Below, piece after piece: positions 27,948-32,286 of a DNA stretch of 38,555 nucleotides (the stretch's first letter is position 1; each line of letters begins with the position of its first letter). Source of the DNA: an uncultured Eubacteriales bacterium (GTDB lineage: Bacteria; Bacillota; Clostridia; Christensenellales; CAG-138). The notes below the pieces were generated by a model that saw nothing but the letters and a program-made list of their open reading frames with translations, was not told the origin of the DNA and made no database searches. Position numbers and translations under genes: made by a program. The DNA lies in NCBI GenBank assembly GCA_902802575.1, contig CADCMN010000017.1, forward strand, positions 1-38,555. The letters are read 5' to 3'.

Positions 27948-28466
27948 ATGGAAAGAAGAAACGACAACTACCTATCTGACGGCGACATCGTCCGCGTCGT
28001 GGAGACCTATTCGGATATGCTGCTGAGGATCGCCCTGAACCGGGTGAAGACCATCTCGGCGGCGGAGGACATCGTGCAGGGCGTCTTTGAGCGGCTCATG
28101 CGCCGGCGGCCCATCTTTGAGAGTTCGGAACACGAGAAGGCCTGGCTCATCCGCACGGCGGTGAACCTGTGCTTGAGCGACCTGCGGGCCGAGACCCGCC
28201 ACGGCAGCGTGCCCCTGGACGAGAACATCGCCCAGGACTATGGGGAGGACACCTTCGAGGTCCTGGACGCGGTCCAGACCCTGCCCGCGCCGGACCGGTA
28301 CGCGGTGTATCTCTACTACTACGAGGGCTACGGCGTGAAGGAGATCGGCAAGCTCCTGAAGGAGCCCGACGGCACCGTCAGTTCCCGGCTCTCCCGGGCC
28401 CGGAAGAAACTCAGAGCCATCTTGGAAGGAGGCAACCATGGAAGACAGATACAGCAGCGCCTTTGA
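27948..28466 (+). CDS. Second ECF-type RNA polymerase sigma factor
   Basis: A 172-residue ECF sigma factor. Region 2 (VVETYSDMLLRIALNRVKTISAAEDIVQGVFERLMRR) and region 4 (LPAPDRYAVYLYYYEGYGVKEIGKLL, SSRLSRARKKLRAIL) are intact. It is related to the factor at 20546, for instance in the shared YYYEGY/FYYEGY-x-V-x-EIGK segment. AAAGGAGG lies six to seven bases before the ATG. The 3' end overlaps by 29 bases the RBS-preceded start of the anti-sigma gene at 28438. No clear promoter precedes it. The gene starts after the terminator of the transporter operon, so its transcription is probably separate. Confidence 0.92.
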   Translation: MERRNDNYLSDGDIVRVVETYSDMLLRIALNRVKTISAAEDIVQGVFERLMRRRPIFESSEHEKAWLIRTAVNLCLSDLRAETRHGSVPLDENIAQDYGEDTFEVLDAVQTLPAPDRYAVYLYYYEGYGVKEIGKLLKEPDGTVSSRLSRARKKLRAILEGGNHGRQIQQRL

Positions 28467-28545
28467 CGAAGTGCGCGCTTCGAAGGGCAGCCCGAGGAAC
28501 AGGCCCAGCGGTCACAGCGCACCGTGTCCGTACCCCGGCGGCTGA
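28438..28545 (+). pseudogene. Detached N-terminal frame of the second anti-sigma gene
   Basis: An AAGGAGG-preceded ATG at 28438 opens a short frame, MEDRYSSAFDEVRAS, the typical start of Clostridia anti-sigma proteins, which then reads into unrelated residues and stops at 28545. The frame that follows at 28479 onward reads EGQPEEQAQRSQRT and continues without break into the transmembrane helix of the downstream protein. Adding one G in the TCGAAGGG sequence near 28480-28487 would join the two parts as RASEGQPEEQ. This indicates a one-base loss, either real or a sequencing error. Confidence 0.75.
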
Positions 28546-30092
28546 GGAAGCGGACGCTGACGGTCCTCGTCGCGGCGGTCATCCTGCTTATGGCGGGCAC
28601 GGCATTGGCCATCGGCATCAACGCCATGATCGGCGCCCGGGACCGGGCCCAAACGGCCATCGCCTCCTACCAGGCGGTGCTGGAGGGGAAGGGGCTCCCG
28701 GAGGGCTCGGCGGACCTGCCCGGCGGCAGCGTGCCCGCGCCGTCCCCCTACATCACCTACACCAAGTTCCAGGCCGACGAGGACGGCAAATGGCTGCCGG
28801 ACGAGATCAAGGACATCGACGTCAGCGCCCAGGTAAGCGAGCTCACGGTGCGGCTCACGGCCCTGATCTCCCGCACGGAATTCGAGCAGCTGGCCTGCTA
28901 CCTGCAGGTGGAGGGGGAAAAGCCCGTGCCCTACGCTCTGACCGAGCTTCGCCTCAGTATCAACGGCGGCGAGCCCCTGAAGACCCGGGCGGAGCTGGAA
29001 TGGGAGCAGAGTTACAGCGGCTTCCGCGCCACGCCCCTGCCGGTGGCGGACTGGAACACGGACCATAGCGACACCAACTATCTGACCTTCCCCCTGGCGG
29101 AGAACCCCCTTCGGGCCGGGAGCACCTTCACCCTCACCGGCAAGCTCAACGGCGAAGCCTTCGAGCTCAGCTATACCTTCACCGAGGCGCGGTATGAGGA
29201 GCTGCGGCAGACCCAGCTCCAGGAGGTGGGCGCCATGGCCGCCGTCATCGACGCCATCCCCGACGAGACCATCCCCGTGAACGTGGCCGCCCGGTGGCTG
29301 CTGATCGAGGACATGGCCATCACCGATCATTTCCTGTACTATACGACGACCCGGGATCCCAGCGTGACCATTCAAGAGGGGGCTTCGCGGCCCGGCGCCC
29401 CCTACGACACCTATGATGACGGCATGTGGACCGTGGTGGACGGCATGATTACGGAATTCGAATTCGTCAGCGTTTCCGACGACGAGAACGGCGTCAGCCA
29501 CAGCATCTACCGGGCCTACTTCCCCTATGACGACGACAATTTGCCCAAGGAATCCCTGATCTCCCTCATGGGCGTGGTCTTCCGCATGGAGTGGGCCACG
29601 AAGAAGGTCGCCGGCCCTAAGGACCAGGCGGAGTACGAGGCATGGCGCAAGGAGAGCATGGAGCTGTCGGCGCCGGATTACGGCACGGACTACATCGCCA
29701 AATTCTCCGCCAAGGCGGACACCTTCACCGTCACCCAGGCCGTGTACCTCAACAGCTTTATGGGCTATTTCGCCCTGGTGGTGGAGACGGACCAGGCCGT
29801 GGAGAAGCCCCTCTACGGCATGGACCGGCAGCCCGTGGTCACGGTGAACGGGGTGAAGCTCAACAACCACACCAACTACATCCAGACCCCCAACGACTTC
29901 ATGGGCGGCTCCGACAAAGGCGGCAAGCGGGTGGGCTTCTGGCTGGACGCCCCGGCCTATAGGCTCCTCCCGGACACCTTCGACGTGACCGTTTCTTGGA
30001 ACGGCAGCTCCGTCACCTTCACCCTCCATAAGTCGGACTTTACGCCCGGCGACGCCCAGCACGGGGAGTACCATACGCTGTTCGGGTTCTGA
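28524..30092 (+). CDS. Membrane-anchored anti-sigma-like protein (intact gene would start at 28438)
   Basis: The visible frame gives 522 residues: a basic stretch (VPRRLRKRT), a transmembrane helix (about 11-31, LTVLVAAVILLMAGTALAIG) and a long outer part with many beta-rich segments and no domain that I can name. Features such as KGKLNGEAFELSYTFTEA, WTVVDGMITEFEFVSVSD and a closing VTVSWNGSSVTFTLHKSDF suggest several immunoglobulin-like folds. The GTG at 28524 is not a convincing start: the real start is probably 28438, with AAGGAGG, separated by an apparent one-base deletion. Position after the sigma gene and the N-terminal layout indicate an anti-sigma factor. If the frameshift is real the sigma-binding part is lost. 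Confidence 0.78.
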   Translation: MSVPRRLRKRTLTVLVAAVILLMAGTALAIGINAMIGARDRAQTAIASYQAVLEGKGLPEGSADLPGGSVPAPSPYITYTKFQADEDGKWLPDEIKDIDVSAQVSELTVRLTALISRTEFEQLACYLQVEGEKPVPYALTELRLSINGGEPLKTRAELEWEQSYSGFRATPLPVADWNTDHSDTNYLTFPLAENPLRAGSTFTLTGKLNGEAFELSYTFTEARYEELRQTQLQEVGAMAAVIDAIPDETIPVNVAARWLLIEDMAITDHFLYYTTTRDPSVTIQEGASRPGAPYDTYDDGMWTVVDGMITEFEFVSVSDDENGVSHSIYRAYFPYDDDNLPKESLISLMGVVFRMEWATKKVAGPKDQAEYEAWRKESMELSAPDYGTDYIAKFSAKADTFTVTQAVYLNSFMGYFALVVETDQAVEKPLYGMDRQPVVTVNGVKLNNHTNYIQTPNDFMGGSDKGGKRVGFWLDAPAYRLLPDTFDVTVSWNGSSVTFTLHKSDFTPGDAQHGEYHTLFGF

Positions 30093-30107: not shown

Positions 30108-30256
30108 GCCGCCTTTTCTCTTTAGACAAAGAGAAAAGGCGGCGGGAAAAGAGAAACTAAAGAAGGGTAAGAGGTTTTAACATGAACCATCTTACCCTTC
30201 TTTGCTTCTCTTTTTTCGGTTCCTTTTTTCTCTTCTCATGAAGAGAAAAAAGGAAC
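30108..30256. repeat. Three-hairpin intergenic element, copy A
   Basis: Three large stem-loops fill the gap between convergent genes. First (30108-30143): a perfect 16-bp stem GCCGCCTTTTCTCTTT, loop AGAC. Second (30147-30214): AAAGAAGGGTAAGA pairs with TCTTACCCTTCTTT, extended outward by AAAAGAGAA/TTCTCTTTT. Third (30219-30256): a perfect 17-bp stem GTTCCTTTTTTCTCTTC, loop TCAT. Sequence and order resemble those at 37287-37418. The T runs could serve as bidirectional terminators, but three such long stems exceed what a terminator needs. Confidence 0.85.
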
Positions 30257-30262
30257 AACAAA

Positions 30263-31045
30263 TCATTTCGCGTATAGCATCCCGATGAGCCGATTGGCCG
30301 CGCCGCTGGGCAAAATGCGGATGAGGACGTTTACCAGGTTGTAGGCAAAGCCCGGGATGTAGAGGGGCTTCACGCGGCGTTTCAGGGCCACGCGGGCGAT
30401 CAGGTCCCCCACCTTTTGGGCCGGGACGCCGTGCTGCTCGTCGTGCTCCATGCGCGCCACGGACCGCTCGATCCGGCCGCCGTAGAGGCCCTCCGGGTCG
30501 CCGATCTTCTCCCGGGCGGCGGTGAAGCCGGTCTTGGTGTCCCCGGGGAGCACGGCCGTGAGGGTGATGTTGAAGGGCGAAAGCTCGTTGGCCATGGCCA
30601 TGGTGTAGGATTGGACGGCGGCCTTGGAGGCGGAGTACCAGGTCTGGAAGGGGATGGGCACGAACCCGGCTGCGGAGCCCGTGTTCACGATCCGCCCGCC
30701 GCCCTGGGCGCGCATGGCGGGGATCACGGCGTTCACCATATTGGCCGTGCCGAAGAGGTTCACGTCCAGCTGCTGTTTCGCGGCCTCGAGAGGCGTCAGC
30801 TCCCCGGCCCCGGAGATGCCGAAGCCCGCGCAGTTCACCAGGATATCGACGCGGCCTTCCCTGCCGAGGACCGTCTCCACAGCGGCCCGGGCGCTGCTTT
30901 CCTCCGACACGTCGCAGGCCAGATGGCGTTCGCCGTGTCCGCGGCGGCTCAGGGCGTAGACGGTGCAGCCCCGCGCCTCCAGGGCCGCCACCGCGGCCAG
31001 GCCGATGCCGCTGGTGCCCCCGGTAACGATGGCGACTTTATTCAT
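30263..31045 (-). CDS. Short-chain dehydrogenase/reductase, candidate 3-keto-amino-lipid reductase
   Basis: A 260-residue classical SDR. It has the NAD(P)-binding TGGTSGIG (8-15), NCAGFG (71-76), Asn96 and the catalytic set Ser124, Tyr137, Lys141 (YSASK). SRRGHGE after beta-2 suggests NADPH preference. The C-terminal region contains LPGDTKTGF and ends in hydrophobic segments that could contact membrane, reminiscent of 3-ketodihydrosphingosine reductases. The ATG at 31045 overlaps by eight bases the stop of the alpha-oxoamine synthase gene, giving tight coupling. In sphingolipid synthesis a synthase like that neighbour is followed by exactly this type of reductase, so reduction of the 3-keto product is the leading hypothesis. 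SDRs are diverse, so this is inference. Confidence 0.9.
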   Translation of the reverse strand: MNKVAIVTGGTSGIGLAAVAALEARGCTVYALSRRGHGERHLACDVSEESSARAAVETVLGREGRVDILVNCAGFGISGAGELTPLEAAKQQLDVNLFGTANMVNAVIPAMRAQGGGRIVNTGSAAGFVPIPFQTWYSASKAAVQSYTMAMANELSPFNITLTAVLPGDTKTGFTAAREKIGDPEGLYGGRIERSVARMEHDEQHGVPAQKVGDLIARVALKRRVKPLYIPGFAYNLVNVLIRILPSGAANRLIGMLYAK

Positions 31046-32216
31046 GGTGGGCCTCCAAAACCCGCTGCAGCACGTCCGCGGCTTCGTCCAGGAGAGCCTC
31101 CGTATGGGTGGCCATCAGGCTGGTCCGGAGCATGCATCCGTCGGCGGGGGCGGCGGGCGGCAGGACCGTGTTCACGTAGACGCCGTTCTCATAGAGCGCC
31201 TTGGCCACGTGCATGGTCCGCTCCGCCTGATAGGTGAAGATGGGCACGATAGGGGTTTTGCTTTCCCGGATAGCGATGCCCCGGTCCTTCAGGGCGCCGC
31301 GGAAGTGTTCGCTGAGATCGGAGAGCCGCTGGGGGAGTTCCGGGTGCTTTTCCAGATATCGAAGGGCCGCCAGCGCCGTGGCGCAGCTCGCGGGCGGGAT
31401 GGAAGCGGAGAAGATGAAGGGGCGGGAGCTGTGACGCACGTAATCCGCTATTCGATCGTCCGCGGCCATGTAGCCGCCGAGACTGGCCAGAGACTTGGAG
31501 AAAGTGCCCATATACACGTCTACTTCCTTCTCCAGGCCGAAGTGGCTGGCGGTGCCCCGACCGCCCTCGCCGATGGTGCCTAAACCGTGGGCGTCGTCCA
31601 CCATGACCCGAGCGCCGTACTGCCGGGCGAGGCGAACGATGTTGGGGAGGTCCGCGATGTCCCCGCCCATGGAGAACACGCCATCGGTGATGATGAGCGC
31701 GCCGGACGTCTCCGGCACCTGCCTGAGGCAGCGTTCCAGGTCCTCCATGTCGTTATGCCGATAGCGGAGCATTTTCCCGAAGCTCAGCCGGGTGCCGTCG
31801 TAAATGCTGGCATGGTTTTCCCGATCCAGGATCATATAGTCGCTGCGGCCCACCAGGGCGCTGATGATGCCCAGGTTGGACTGGAAGCCCGTGGAGAAGG
31901 TTATGGCGGCCTCCTTGTTCAAAAAGCGGGCCAGCTCGCGCTCCAGCTCAAGGTGCATGGTCAGGGTGCCGTTGAGGAATCGGGAGCCGGAGCAGCCCGT
32001 GCCGAACTCTTCCAGGGCGCGGACGCCCGCCTCCACCACTTCCGGACAGCTGGTGAGCCCCAGATAGTTGTTGGACCCCAGCATGATCCGGCGCTTGCCC
32101 TCCATGACGACCTCGGGCCCCTGCCGGGTCTCCAGGGCGCGGAAGTAGGGGTAGATGCCCTTCTCTCTATATTCGTCCGCCAGGGACGGAGCGTAGCATT
32201 TTGCAAACAGATCCAT
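31038..32216 (-). CDS. Alpha-oxoamine synthase, serine palmitoyltransferase-like
   Basis: PLP enzyme of 392 residues in the family that condenses an amino acid with an acyl-CoA (or acyl-ACP). The PLP lysine is Lys241 in GTFSKSLASLGG; His135 (NHASIYDG) stacks on PLP, and Asp208/His210 lie in VDDAHGLGTIGEGGRG. The internal signature FGTGCSGSRFLNGTL, FSTGFQSNLGIISAL, and RPFIFSASIPPASCATALAAL resemble bacterial serine palmitoyltransferase more than glycine C-acetyltransferase or BioF. GGGGG about seven bases upstream supports the ATG at 32216. With the coupled reductase gene it forms a two-step module resembling sphingoid-base or sulfonolipid-type synthesis. No biotin or threonine catabolism gene is near. 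Substrate is not proven. Confidence 0.88.
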   Translation of the reverse strand: MDLFAKCYAPSLADEYREKGIYPYFRALETRQGPEVVMEGKRRIMLGSNNYLGLTSCPEVVEAGVRALEEFGTGCSGSRFLNGTLTMHLELERELARFLNKEAAITFSTGFQSNLGIISALVGRSDYMILDRENHASIYDGTRLSFGKMLRYRHNDMEDLERCLRQVPETSGALIITDGVFSMGGDIADLPNIVRLARQYGARVMVDDAHGLGTIGEGGRGTASHFGLEKEVDVYMGTFSKSLASLGGYMAADDRIADYVRHSSRPFIFSASIPPASCATALAALRYLEKHPELPQRLSDLSEHFRGALKDRGIAIRESKTPIVPIFTYQAERTMHVAKALYENGVYVNTVLPPAAPADGCMLRTSLMATHTEALLDEAADVLQRVLEAHHE

Positions 32217-32234
32217 TGAGATACCCCCAAGATG

Positions 32235-32257: not shown

Positions 32258-32286
32258 AGTATACACAGGAAGGGCGCGTCTGTCAA
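32258..32286 (-). promoter_or_regulatory. Strong promoter of the synthase-reductase pair
   Basis: On the minus strand TTGACA and TATACT with an exact 17-base spacer, 42 bases before the ATG at 32216. Confidence 0.85.

What the first reader, a model, noticed from the sequence alone, without database searches (positions are those of the whole stretch)
30263..32216. Sphingolipid-like two-gene module: serine palmitoyltransferase-like synthase plus coupled SDR
The synthase carries FGTGCSGSRFLNGTL and RPFIFSASIPP, which I associate with serine palmitoyltransferase and not with KBL or BioF. It overlaps by eight bases an SDR with Ser124/Tyr137/Lys141. Condensation followed by 3-keto reduction is the first half of sphingoid-base synthesis, and also of sulfonolipid synthesis. 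Such pathways are known mainly in Bacteroidetes and alpha-Proteobacteria and are unusual for Clostridia. There is no biotin or threonine-degradation gene nearby to explain the synthase otherwise.
Basis: partly seen in the sequence, partly recalled or inferred. Interest (0 to 1): 0.78.

Follow-up and report, generated by a model that had tools for sequence, protein, structure and literature searches.

The report
Clostridial sphingoid-base synthesis gene pair
A gut Clostridia genome carries two overlapping genes whose relatives make the backbone of sphingolipids, membrane lipids usually linked to animals, fungi and a few other bacterial groups, and the pair is kept in many related Clostridia, so these bacteria may be overlooked sphingolipid makers; no lipid has been measured.

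Summary
In detail: a 392-aa alpha-oxoamine synthase (31038-32216, -) overlaps by 8 bp a 260-aa SDR (30263-31045, -). The synthase scores best against Bacteroidota SPT (523.7 bits, below that model's 640 cut-off). In a 94-row tree it lies in a clostridial clade (100/99) next to Bacteroidota SPT (91/74, not firm). Joining it to KBL is rejected (p-AU 0.0003). Ala271 stands where SulA has Lys281. The SDR's best model is 3-ketodihydrosphingosine reductase (191 bits, cut-off 400), barely ahead of the next. The SDR neighbours the synthase in 62 of 89 countable clostridial-type loci, in three arrangements; one sub-clade mostly lacks the linkage. The synthase is in 46 of 50 good genomes of the family and 22 of 187 sampled from the class. 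A tandem-GNAT protein that follows SPT in other phyla occurs in 20 of 24 synthase-positive against 16 of 172 negative class genomes: a candidate ceramide synthase, but the association vanishes inside the window's own family. Substrates and products are untested. I call it a new variant of SPT-based sphingoid-base synthesis, reduction-first type.

The parts
31038..32216 (-). SPT-like PLP-dependent alpha-oxoamine synthase, 392 aa; Lys241 Schiff-base lysine, His135, Asp207, His210, Asn49, Arg364, Ala271 by alignment
30263..31045 (-). classical SDR, 260 aa, KdsR (3-ketosphinganine reductase)-like; Ser124, Tyr137, Lys141, Arg34
31038..31045 (-). 8-base overlap of the two reading frames (translational coupling likely)
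   Evidence: an 8-base overlap in 16 of the 50 loci with a downstream SDR, any overlap in 37 of 50
32258..32286 (-). sigma-70-type promoter-like site TTGACA-N17-TATACT
   Evidence: consensus match only
32224..32228 (-). likely ribosome-binding site GGGGG, 7 nt before ATG 32216
   Evidence: read by eye
31052..31056 (-). likely ribosome-binding site GGAGG of the SDR, inside the synthase gene
   Evidence: read by eye

Best explanation
The two genes form a two-enzyme operon for a sphingoid base. The synthase condenses an amino acid, most likely L-serine, with a long-chain acyl thioester (CoA or ACP, not decided) by PLP chemistry, giving 3-ketosphinganine and CO2. The SDR reduces the 3-keto group, probably with NADPH (Arg34 after the second strand), to sphinganine. 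The order would be reduction first, as in eukaryotes and as shown in vitro for Bacteroides BT_0972. In many but not all hosts an unlinked tandem-GNAT protein may then N-acylate the base to dihydroceramide. Shown here: gene structure, conserved catalytic residues, SPT-side placement, frequent pairing. Inferred: substrates, cofactor, order of steps, N-acylation, membrane role.
For: Best NCBIfam model NF047600 SPT 523.7 bits against BioF 383, KBL 316-384, ALAS 254. Best PDB sequences are SPT, 428 bits; entries labelled 8-amino-7-oxononanoate synthase/KBL reach 278, CFAT 261, other KBL 243-257. Tree: clostridial clade of 34 rows 100/99, next to Bacteroidota SPT incl. 3a2b 91/74; KBL rows, including the KBL paralogues of clostridial relatives, form another clade 100/96; clostridial rows plus KBL rejected, p-AU 0.000337. 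The Spt active-site residues named in the passages of PMC9304779 that I read are conserved, with Ala at the diagnostic position. SDR: all 19 scanned match KdsR, which has the best E-value of the 25 families listed (6.7e-93 against 2e-78). SDR beside the synthase in 62 of 89 countable loci, in three gene orders. In the class sample 21 of 24 synthase-positive genomes have the SDR at E 1e-70 against 8 of 172 negative; 16 of the 24 have it as a neighbour by coordinates, and 5 of the other 8 have it elsewhere (hand count).
Against: Both proteins fall short of the curated cut-offs (523.7 of 640; 191 of 400), and for the window SDR the KdsR model leads the next model by 0.8 bit only. The sister relation to Bacteroidota SPT is not firm, and a sister relation to CFAT-type rows is not rejected. 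In 27 of 89 countable loci no SDR adjoins the synthase; among the nine lower-scoring loci added last, eight lack it, mostly one sub-clade of the family and order. No acyl carrier, ligase, N-acyltransferase or head-group gene was recognised beside the pair in the window. The GNAT candidate is missing from 12 of 32 synthase-positive genomes of the own family and present in 4 of 5 negative ones (hand count; some of these genomes are incomplete). The SDR co-occurrence test is partly circular, since the model was built from synthase-linked SDRs. I have no lipid data.
Confidence: 0.7

Rival explanations
1. The synthase is a serine-independent long-chain alpha-oxoamine synthase (alanine or glycine as amino acid), so the pair makes 1-deoxy or desoxymethyl amino alcohols, perhaps as secreted signals or inhibitors rather than membrane lipids.
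For: Nothing in the conserved residues I checked fixes serine against alanine or glycine; PMC10191378 (passages) says Spt can use alanine or glycine; 1-deoxysphingolipids were found in euxinic Black Sea waters (PMC11334938 abstract). No head-group gene was recognised beside the pair, and the N-acyltransferase candidate is not universal.
Against: The nearest relatives with solved structures are named serine palmitoyltransferase.
Confidence: 0.14
2. It is a cysteate acyltransferase (SulA/CFAT) with its reductase, making capnine-type sulfonolipid bases.
For: AU test does not reject a sister relation to the two CFAT-type rows (p 0.20).
Against: Ala271 in place of the Lys281 that PMC9304779 gives as diagnostic; CFAT 261 bits against SPT 428; CFAT-type rows L140/L146 form a separate 100/100 pair.
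Confidence: 0.03
3. It is a KBL or BioF paralogue (glycine/acetyl-CoA or alanine/pimeloyl donor) with an unrelated SDR.
For: Same superfamily; annotation pipelines may call it so because no SPT cut-off is reached.
Against: KBL and BioF models score 316-384 bits, below their cut-offs; tree and AU test; the relatives' KBL copies are separate genes; the partner is a KdsR-like SDR in varied arrangements.
Confidence: 0.03
4. The pair feeds another long-chain amino-ketone or amino-alcohol natural product that is unrelated to sphingolipids.
For: [quoted passage not shown] a Priestia plasmid relative at 48% identity sits by methyltransferase and acyltransferase genes.
Against: No PKS or NRPS gene was recognised in the window ORFs scanned or by eye among the neighbours printed; the presence in 46 of 50 good genomes of the family looks like core metabolism.
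Confidence: 0.1

Closest known systems
Serine palmitoyltransferase of Sphingobacterium multivorum (PDB 3a2b) and Bacteroidota SPT (NF047600)
   Same: Nearly full-length similarity (428 bits phmmer), same PLP and carboxylate residues, Ala at the SulA-diagnostic position, neighbouring clade
   Different: Below the equivalog cut-off; own clostridial clade; joined in an operon with the reductase
BT_0972 3-ketosphinganine reductase of Bacteroides thetaiotaomicron (KdsR, NF049977)
   Same: Classical SDR with Ser-Tyr-Lys and a glycine-rich dinucleotide motif; best family model (PMC9278070 passages). That NF049977 covers BT_0972 is assumed from its name
   Different: 191 of 400 bits; BT_0972 is not clustered with SPT, whereas the clostridial SDR often is
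Caulobacter Spt/bCerS/CerR ceramide pathway
   Same: Starts with Spt
   Different: CerR is an NDUFA9-like periplasmic enzyme thought to act after N-acylation (PMC11087976 passages). A query that looked CerR-like by eye, taken beside an SPT gene (L083), found nothing at E 1e-10 in G000, G006 and G012 and only hits of 27-38% identity in five other genomes
SulA/CFAT cysteate acyltransferase (PDB 28eh; 7u7h by similarity)
   Same: Same superfamily and reaction type
   Different: Lys281 against Ala271 here; about 244-261 bits only
KBL (TIGR01822) and BioF (TIGR00858)
   Same: Same superfamily
   Different: Separate clades; scores below cut-offs

Membership tests
Bacterial serine palmitoyltransferase (in the wide sense) | PLP lysine, stacking His, Asp and His at the ring, carboxylate-binding Arg, Asn (residues named in PMC9304779) | tested here: met
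   Lys241, His135, Asp207, His210, Arg364, Asn49, invariant in 23 aligned sequences
Bacterial serine palmitoyltransferase (in the wide sense) | Falls with SPT and apart from KBL/BioF in a tree | tested here: met
   the deep order among SPT groups and CFAT is not settled
Bacterial serine palmitoyltransferase (in the wide sense) | Condenses L-serine with a long-chain acyl thioester | not testable with these tools
   No assay
NF047600 SerpalmtaseCFB equivalog | Curated cut-off 640 bits | tested here: not met
   523.7 bits; so it is not filed under this equivalog
NF049977 KdsR equivalog | Curated cut-off 400 bits | tested here: not met
   191.1 bits for the window SDR; best of 19 SDRs E 6.7e-93
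KdsR-like SDR (in the wide sense) | SDR triad and glycine-rich NAD(P) motif | tested here: met
   Ser124, Tyr137, Lys141; Gly9, Gly13, Gly15 invariant in 19
KdsR-like SDR (in the wide sense) | Reduces 3-ketosphinganine | not testable with these tools
   No assay
SulA/CFAT | Lys281 equivalent | tested here: not met
   Ala271
KBL (TIGR01822) | Cut-off 493 bits; placement with KBL | tested here: not met
   316.3 bits; p-AU 0.000337
BioF (TIGR00858) | Cut-off 426 bits; placement with BioF | tested here: not met
   383 bits; the BioF reference rows lie apart
Complete bacterial dihydroceramide pathway | An N-acyltransferase (ceramide synthase) in the genome | tested here: inconclusive
   Tandem GNAT in G000 C32 and in 20 of 24 positive class genomes, but no association within the own family

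The most novel reading that the evidence does not exclude
Many Clostridia, cells with a single membrane, have a complete de novo sphingolipid pathway in the eukaryote-like order (SPT, then a KdsR-type reductase often in the same operon, then an unlinked tandem-GNAT ceramide synthase), so that part of the sphingolipids of rumen and gut ascribed to Bacteroidota would come from Clostridia.
Probability: 0.4. Interest if true: 0.78.

Novelty: new variant of a known kind. Interest (0 to 1): 0.57.

Why it matters
Passages of PMC10191378 say that detection of sphingolipids in bacteria is largely limited to Bacteroidota and certain alpha-Proteobacteria. PMC11087976 (passages) says that it is not clear whether the Bacteroides 3-ketosphinganine reductase acts in sphingolipid synthesis in vivo. 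An SPT-reductase operon kept in a different phylum is genomic evidence for the reduction-first route and gives a small two-gene unit to test. If the lipids exist, gut and rumen sphingolipid budgets, and studies that quantify Bacteroides spt as the marker (for example PMC12816596, passages), would miss producers.

Tried and rejected
KBL/BioF identity: rejected by models, tree and AU test. Sulfonolipid synthase: made unlikely by Ala271; the tree alone could not exclude it. CerR-type reductase in the genus: the query found none at E 1e-10 in G000 or G006 and one weak hit (27% identity) in G001.

Operon extensions: a lipid kinase follows in L056 and L059, and an acyl-CoA-synthetase-like ORF (by eye) in L028; neither is general, so neither is claimed as a part. 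DegV upstream of the synthase in L032 (L031 by eye) and a DAK2-like ORF (by eye) in L049 looked like a link to fatty-acid kinase but were seen in too few loci.

The tandem GNAT as ceramide synthase: supported across the class and by adjacency to SPT in 21 of the 30 loci among L081-L113 that are outside the clostridial type (the 30 counted by hand); not supported inside the own family, and a GNAT tree did not separate synthase-positive from synthase-negative Clostridia. As a control, KBL (E 1e-140) occurs in 11 of 196 genomes, of which 2 are synthase-positive and 4 GNAT-positive (hand count).

Rows dropped, and a correction made on checking: one search took loci of at least 455 BLASTP bits, plus L081, L082 and L088 by name, and merged copies of the same gene, giving 85 loci. 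L081 (not clostridial) and four contig-edge loci were set aside, leaving 80, of which 61 have a neighbouring SDR. Nine further clostridial loci lay just under the threshold (L158-L160, L162-L165, L187, L188; 434-452 bits); one search shows a divergent SDR in one (L187) and none in eight, so the count that I report is 62 of 89. Loci with little sequence on one side (such as L032 and L160) count as misses. Ten of the 89 come from the window's own genus (at least 80% synthase identity), so the loci are not independent. The tree used a hand-picked part of the loci. Two synthase-bearing MAGs (L058, L079) are labelled Kiritimatiellota and may be mis-binned; they were kept.

No fold search gave a result for the SDR model (one search failed; no other was started).

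Literature: ten searches of open-licence papers; in their listings and in the passages I read I saw no report of SPT in Clostridia. Supplements and most subscription papers were out of reach. Stankeviciute 2022 (a Gram-positive ceramide producer, recalled) was not read; [quoted passage not shown]

Full report
WHAT IS THERE. On the minus strand a 392-codon gene (32216 to 31038) is followed, with 8 bases shared, by a 260-codon gene (31045 to 30263). A promoter-like site TTGACA-17-TATACT lies at 32286-32258, and each start has a purine-rich ribosome-binding site (GGGGG; GGAGG inside the first gene, by eye). Downstream of the SDR, before a convergent gene, lie perfect hairpins. The pair stands alone: the divergent neighbours are an HTH-cupin regulator and an ABC transporter. 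The genome, G000, is a 2.2-Mb assembly in 140 contigs, 77% complete. The nearest named loci, at 88-92% synthase identity, are MAGs titled uncultured Clostridiales or Clostridia, one from sheep jejunum.

THE SYNTHASE. NCBIfam's best model is Bacteroidota serine palmitoyltransferase (523.7 bits; cut-off 640), then another SPT model (402.6), the BioF/Kbl subfamily (394), KBL (383.7 and 316.3) and BioF (383). The best solved structures by sequence are SPT 3a2b and 8guh (428 bits); an enzyme labelled 8-amino-7-oxononanoate synthase/KBL has 278, CFAT 28eh 261 and KBL 1fc4 243. Mapped onto the residues discussed in PMC9304779 (abstract and passages), the protein has Asn49, His135, Asp207, His210, Lys241, Arg364, and Ala271 where the sulfonolipid enzyme SulA has Lys281. 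A 94-row tree places it in a clade of 34 clostridial-type sequences (100/99) beside Bacteroidota SPT, including the 3a2b chain (91/74). E. coli and Phaeobacter KBL and the second synthases of clostridial relatives lie in another clade (100/96); BioF, ALAS and CFAT-type rows lie elsewhere. Holding the clostridial and KBL rows together costs 73 log units (p-AU 0.000337); holding the clostridial rows with the two CFAT-type rows costs 4 (p-AU 0.20), so the tree does not exclude that relation. That L140 is CFAT-type rests on 621 bits to 28eh.

THE REDUCTASE. The SDR's best model is 3-ketodihydrosphingosine reductase KdsR, 191.1 bits of a cut-off of 400, with the next at 190.3. Across 19 clostridial-type SDRs KdsR gives the best E-value of the 25 families listed, 6.7e-93, the next 2e-78. 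The triad Ser124/Tyr137/Lys141, the glycine motif, Arg34 and a late ME.DE.G motif are kept (Met199 nearly so). An AlphaFold model (mean pLDDT 93.6) has two helices at the C-terminus; it was not compared with solved structures.

THE PAIR IN OTHER GENOMES. Synthase matches at E 1e-115 or better occur in 46 of 50 good-quality genomes of the family and 22 of 187 of a class sample. Of 89 countable distinct loci (80 plus nine lower-scoring ones), the SDR is directly downstream in 50 (37 overlapping, 16 by 8 bases), directly upstream in 3, divergent neighbour in 9, and not adjacent in 27. The loci are not independent: ten are from the window's genus. Eight of the 27 misses are among the nine lower-scoring loci, largely one sub-clade of the family and order. 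In 9 of 11 genomes searched by handle an SDR of this family was found at E 1e-40: linked in one (G018) and elsewhere in eight, two of them weak (140 and 166 bits). In the class sample 21 of 24 synthase-positive genomes carry the SDR at E 1e-70 against 8 of 172 negative ones. This test is partly circular because the SDR model comes from linked genes, several of them from these genomes.

A POSSIBLE THIRD STEP. In 21 loci of other phyla (Bacteroidota, Nitrospirota, Methylomirabilota, Planctomycetota and one unlabelled MAG) an approximately 370-aa protein follows the SPT gene (one copy is cut by a contig end). Pfam gives only a weak GNAT match for the two scanned, NCBIfam none; an AlphaFold model (pLDDT 90.2) matches tandem-GNAT structures (Foldseek E 1e-13, 10-15% identity). 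A model of four such proteins, none from Clostridia, finds a homologue in G000 (contig C32, 218 bits) and in 35 of 61 genomes of the relatives search, G000 included. In the class sample it occurs in 20 of 24 synthase-positive and 16 of 172 negative genomes, and in 14 of 18 positive against 10 of 116 negative genera. These tests do not correct for common descent. Inside the window's family there is no association (20 of 32 positive, 4 of 5 negative; hand count), and its tree does not separate the two sets. It is a candidate ceramide synthase, no more.

COMPARISON. Caulobacter is thought to N-acylate first and reduce later with the NDUFA9-like CerR in the periplasm; for Bacteroides a reduction-first enzyme (BT_0972) works in vitro and in E. 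coli but is not clustered with SPT, and its role in vivo is called unclear (passages of PMC11087976; PMC9278070). The clostridial operon pairs SPT with a reductase of the second kind, and a query that looked CerR-like by eye found nothing at E 1e-10 in G000, G006 or G012. Black Sea work reports Spt-like proteins from 38 phyla (PMC11334938, abstract and passages); its main text does not contain the words Firmicutes or Bacillota. In ten literature searches I saw no report of SPT in Clostridia, but most subscription papers and all supplements were outside reach.

VERDICT. Observation confirmed. Interpretation supported for the sphingoid-base route and unlikely for sulfonolipids. It works like SPT plus KdsR; by curated cut-offs it is not a member of either named equivalog. 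It is a new variant of a known kind, of interest because it is widespread in a group not usually counted as sphingolipid producers and because a two-gene operon makes the order of steps directly testable.

Noticed in passing
window 30108-30256: Two perfect hairpins (16 and 17 nt arms) and a longer imperfect inverted repeat fill the gap between the SDR and the convergent gene 28524-30092.
   Followed up: partly
window 28524-30092 (+): 522-aa ORF downstream of a sigma-70-like factor gene (27948-28466) with no Pfam match at E 0.001.
   Followed up: no
L056:8069-8971 and L059:7987-8970: A YegS/DagK-type lipid kinase follows the SPT-SDR pair in two relatives (only the L056 copy was scanned); a possible sphingoid-base kinase.
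   Followed up: partly
L028:3547-4170: An AMP-binding acyl-CoA-synthetase-like ORF (by eye) follows the pair in one relative; a possible acyl-donor supply.
   Followed up: no
L150:6001-7215 (Priestia megaterium plasmid CP109762): SPT-like synthase at 48% identity on a Bacilli plasmid beside methyltransferase and acyltransferase-family genes; in the tree it groups with SPT-like rows of other phyla.
   Followed up: partly
L081, L084, L087, L099, L100, L102, L104: A PAP2-type membrane protein near SPT in seven loci (one cluster); the L104 copy weakly matches phosphoinositol dihydroceramide synthase (30.5 of 480 bits).
   Followed up: no
L083:4381-5652: An extended-SDR-type protein that looks CerR-like by eye lies directly upstream of SPT in a Fraserbacteria MAG, so both reductase types may occur beside SPT in different phyla.
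   Followed up: partly
L058 and L079: Two MAGs labelled Kiritimatiellota carry clostridial-type SPT genes: mis-binning or horizontal transfer.
   Followed up: no
L158-L160, L162-L165: A sub-clade of clostridial SPT-like genes without a neighbouring SDR; where its reductase lies was not searched.
   Followed up: no
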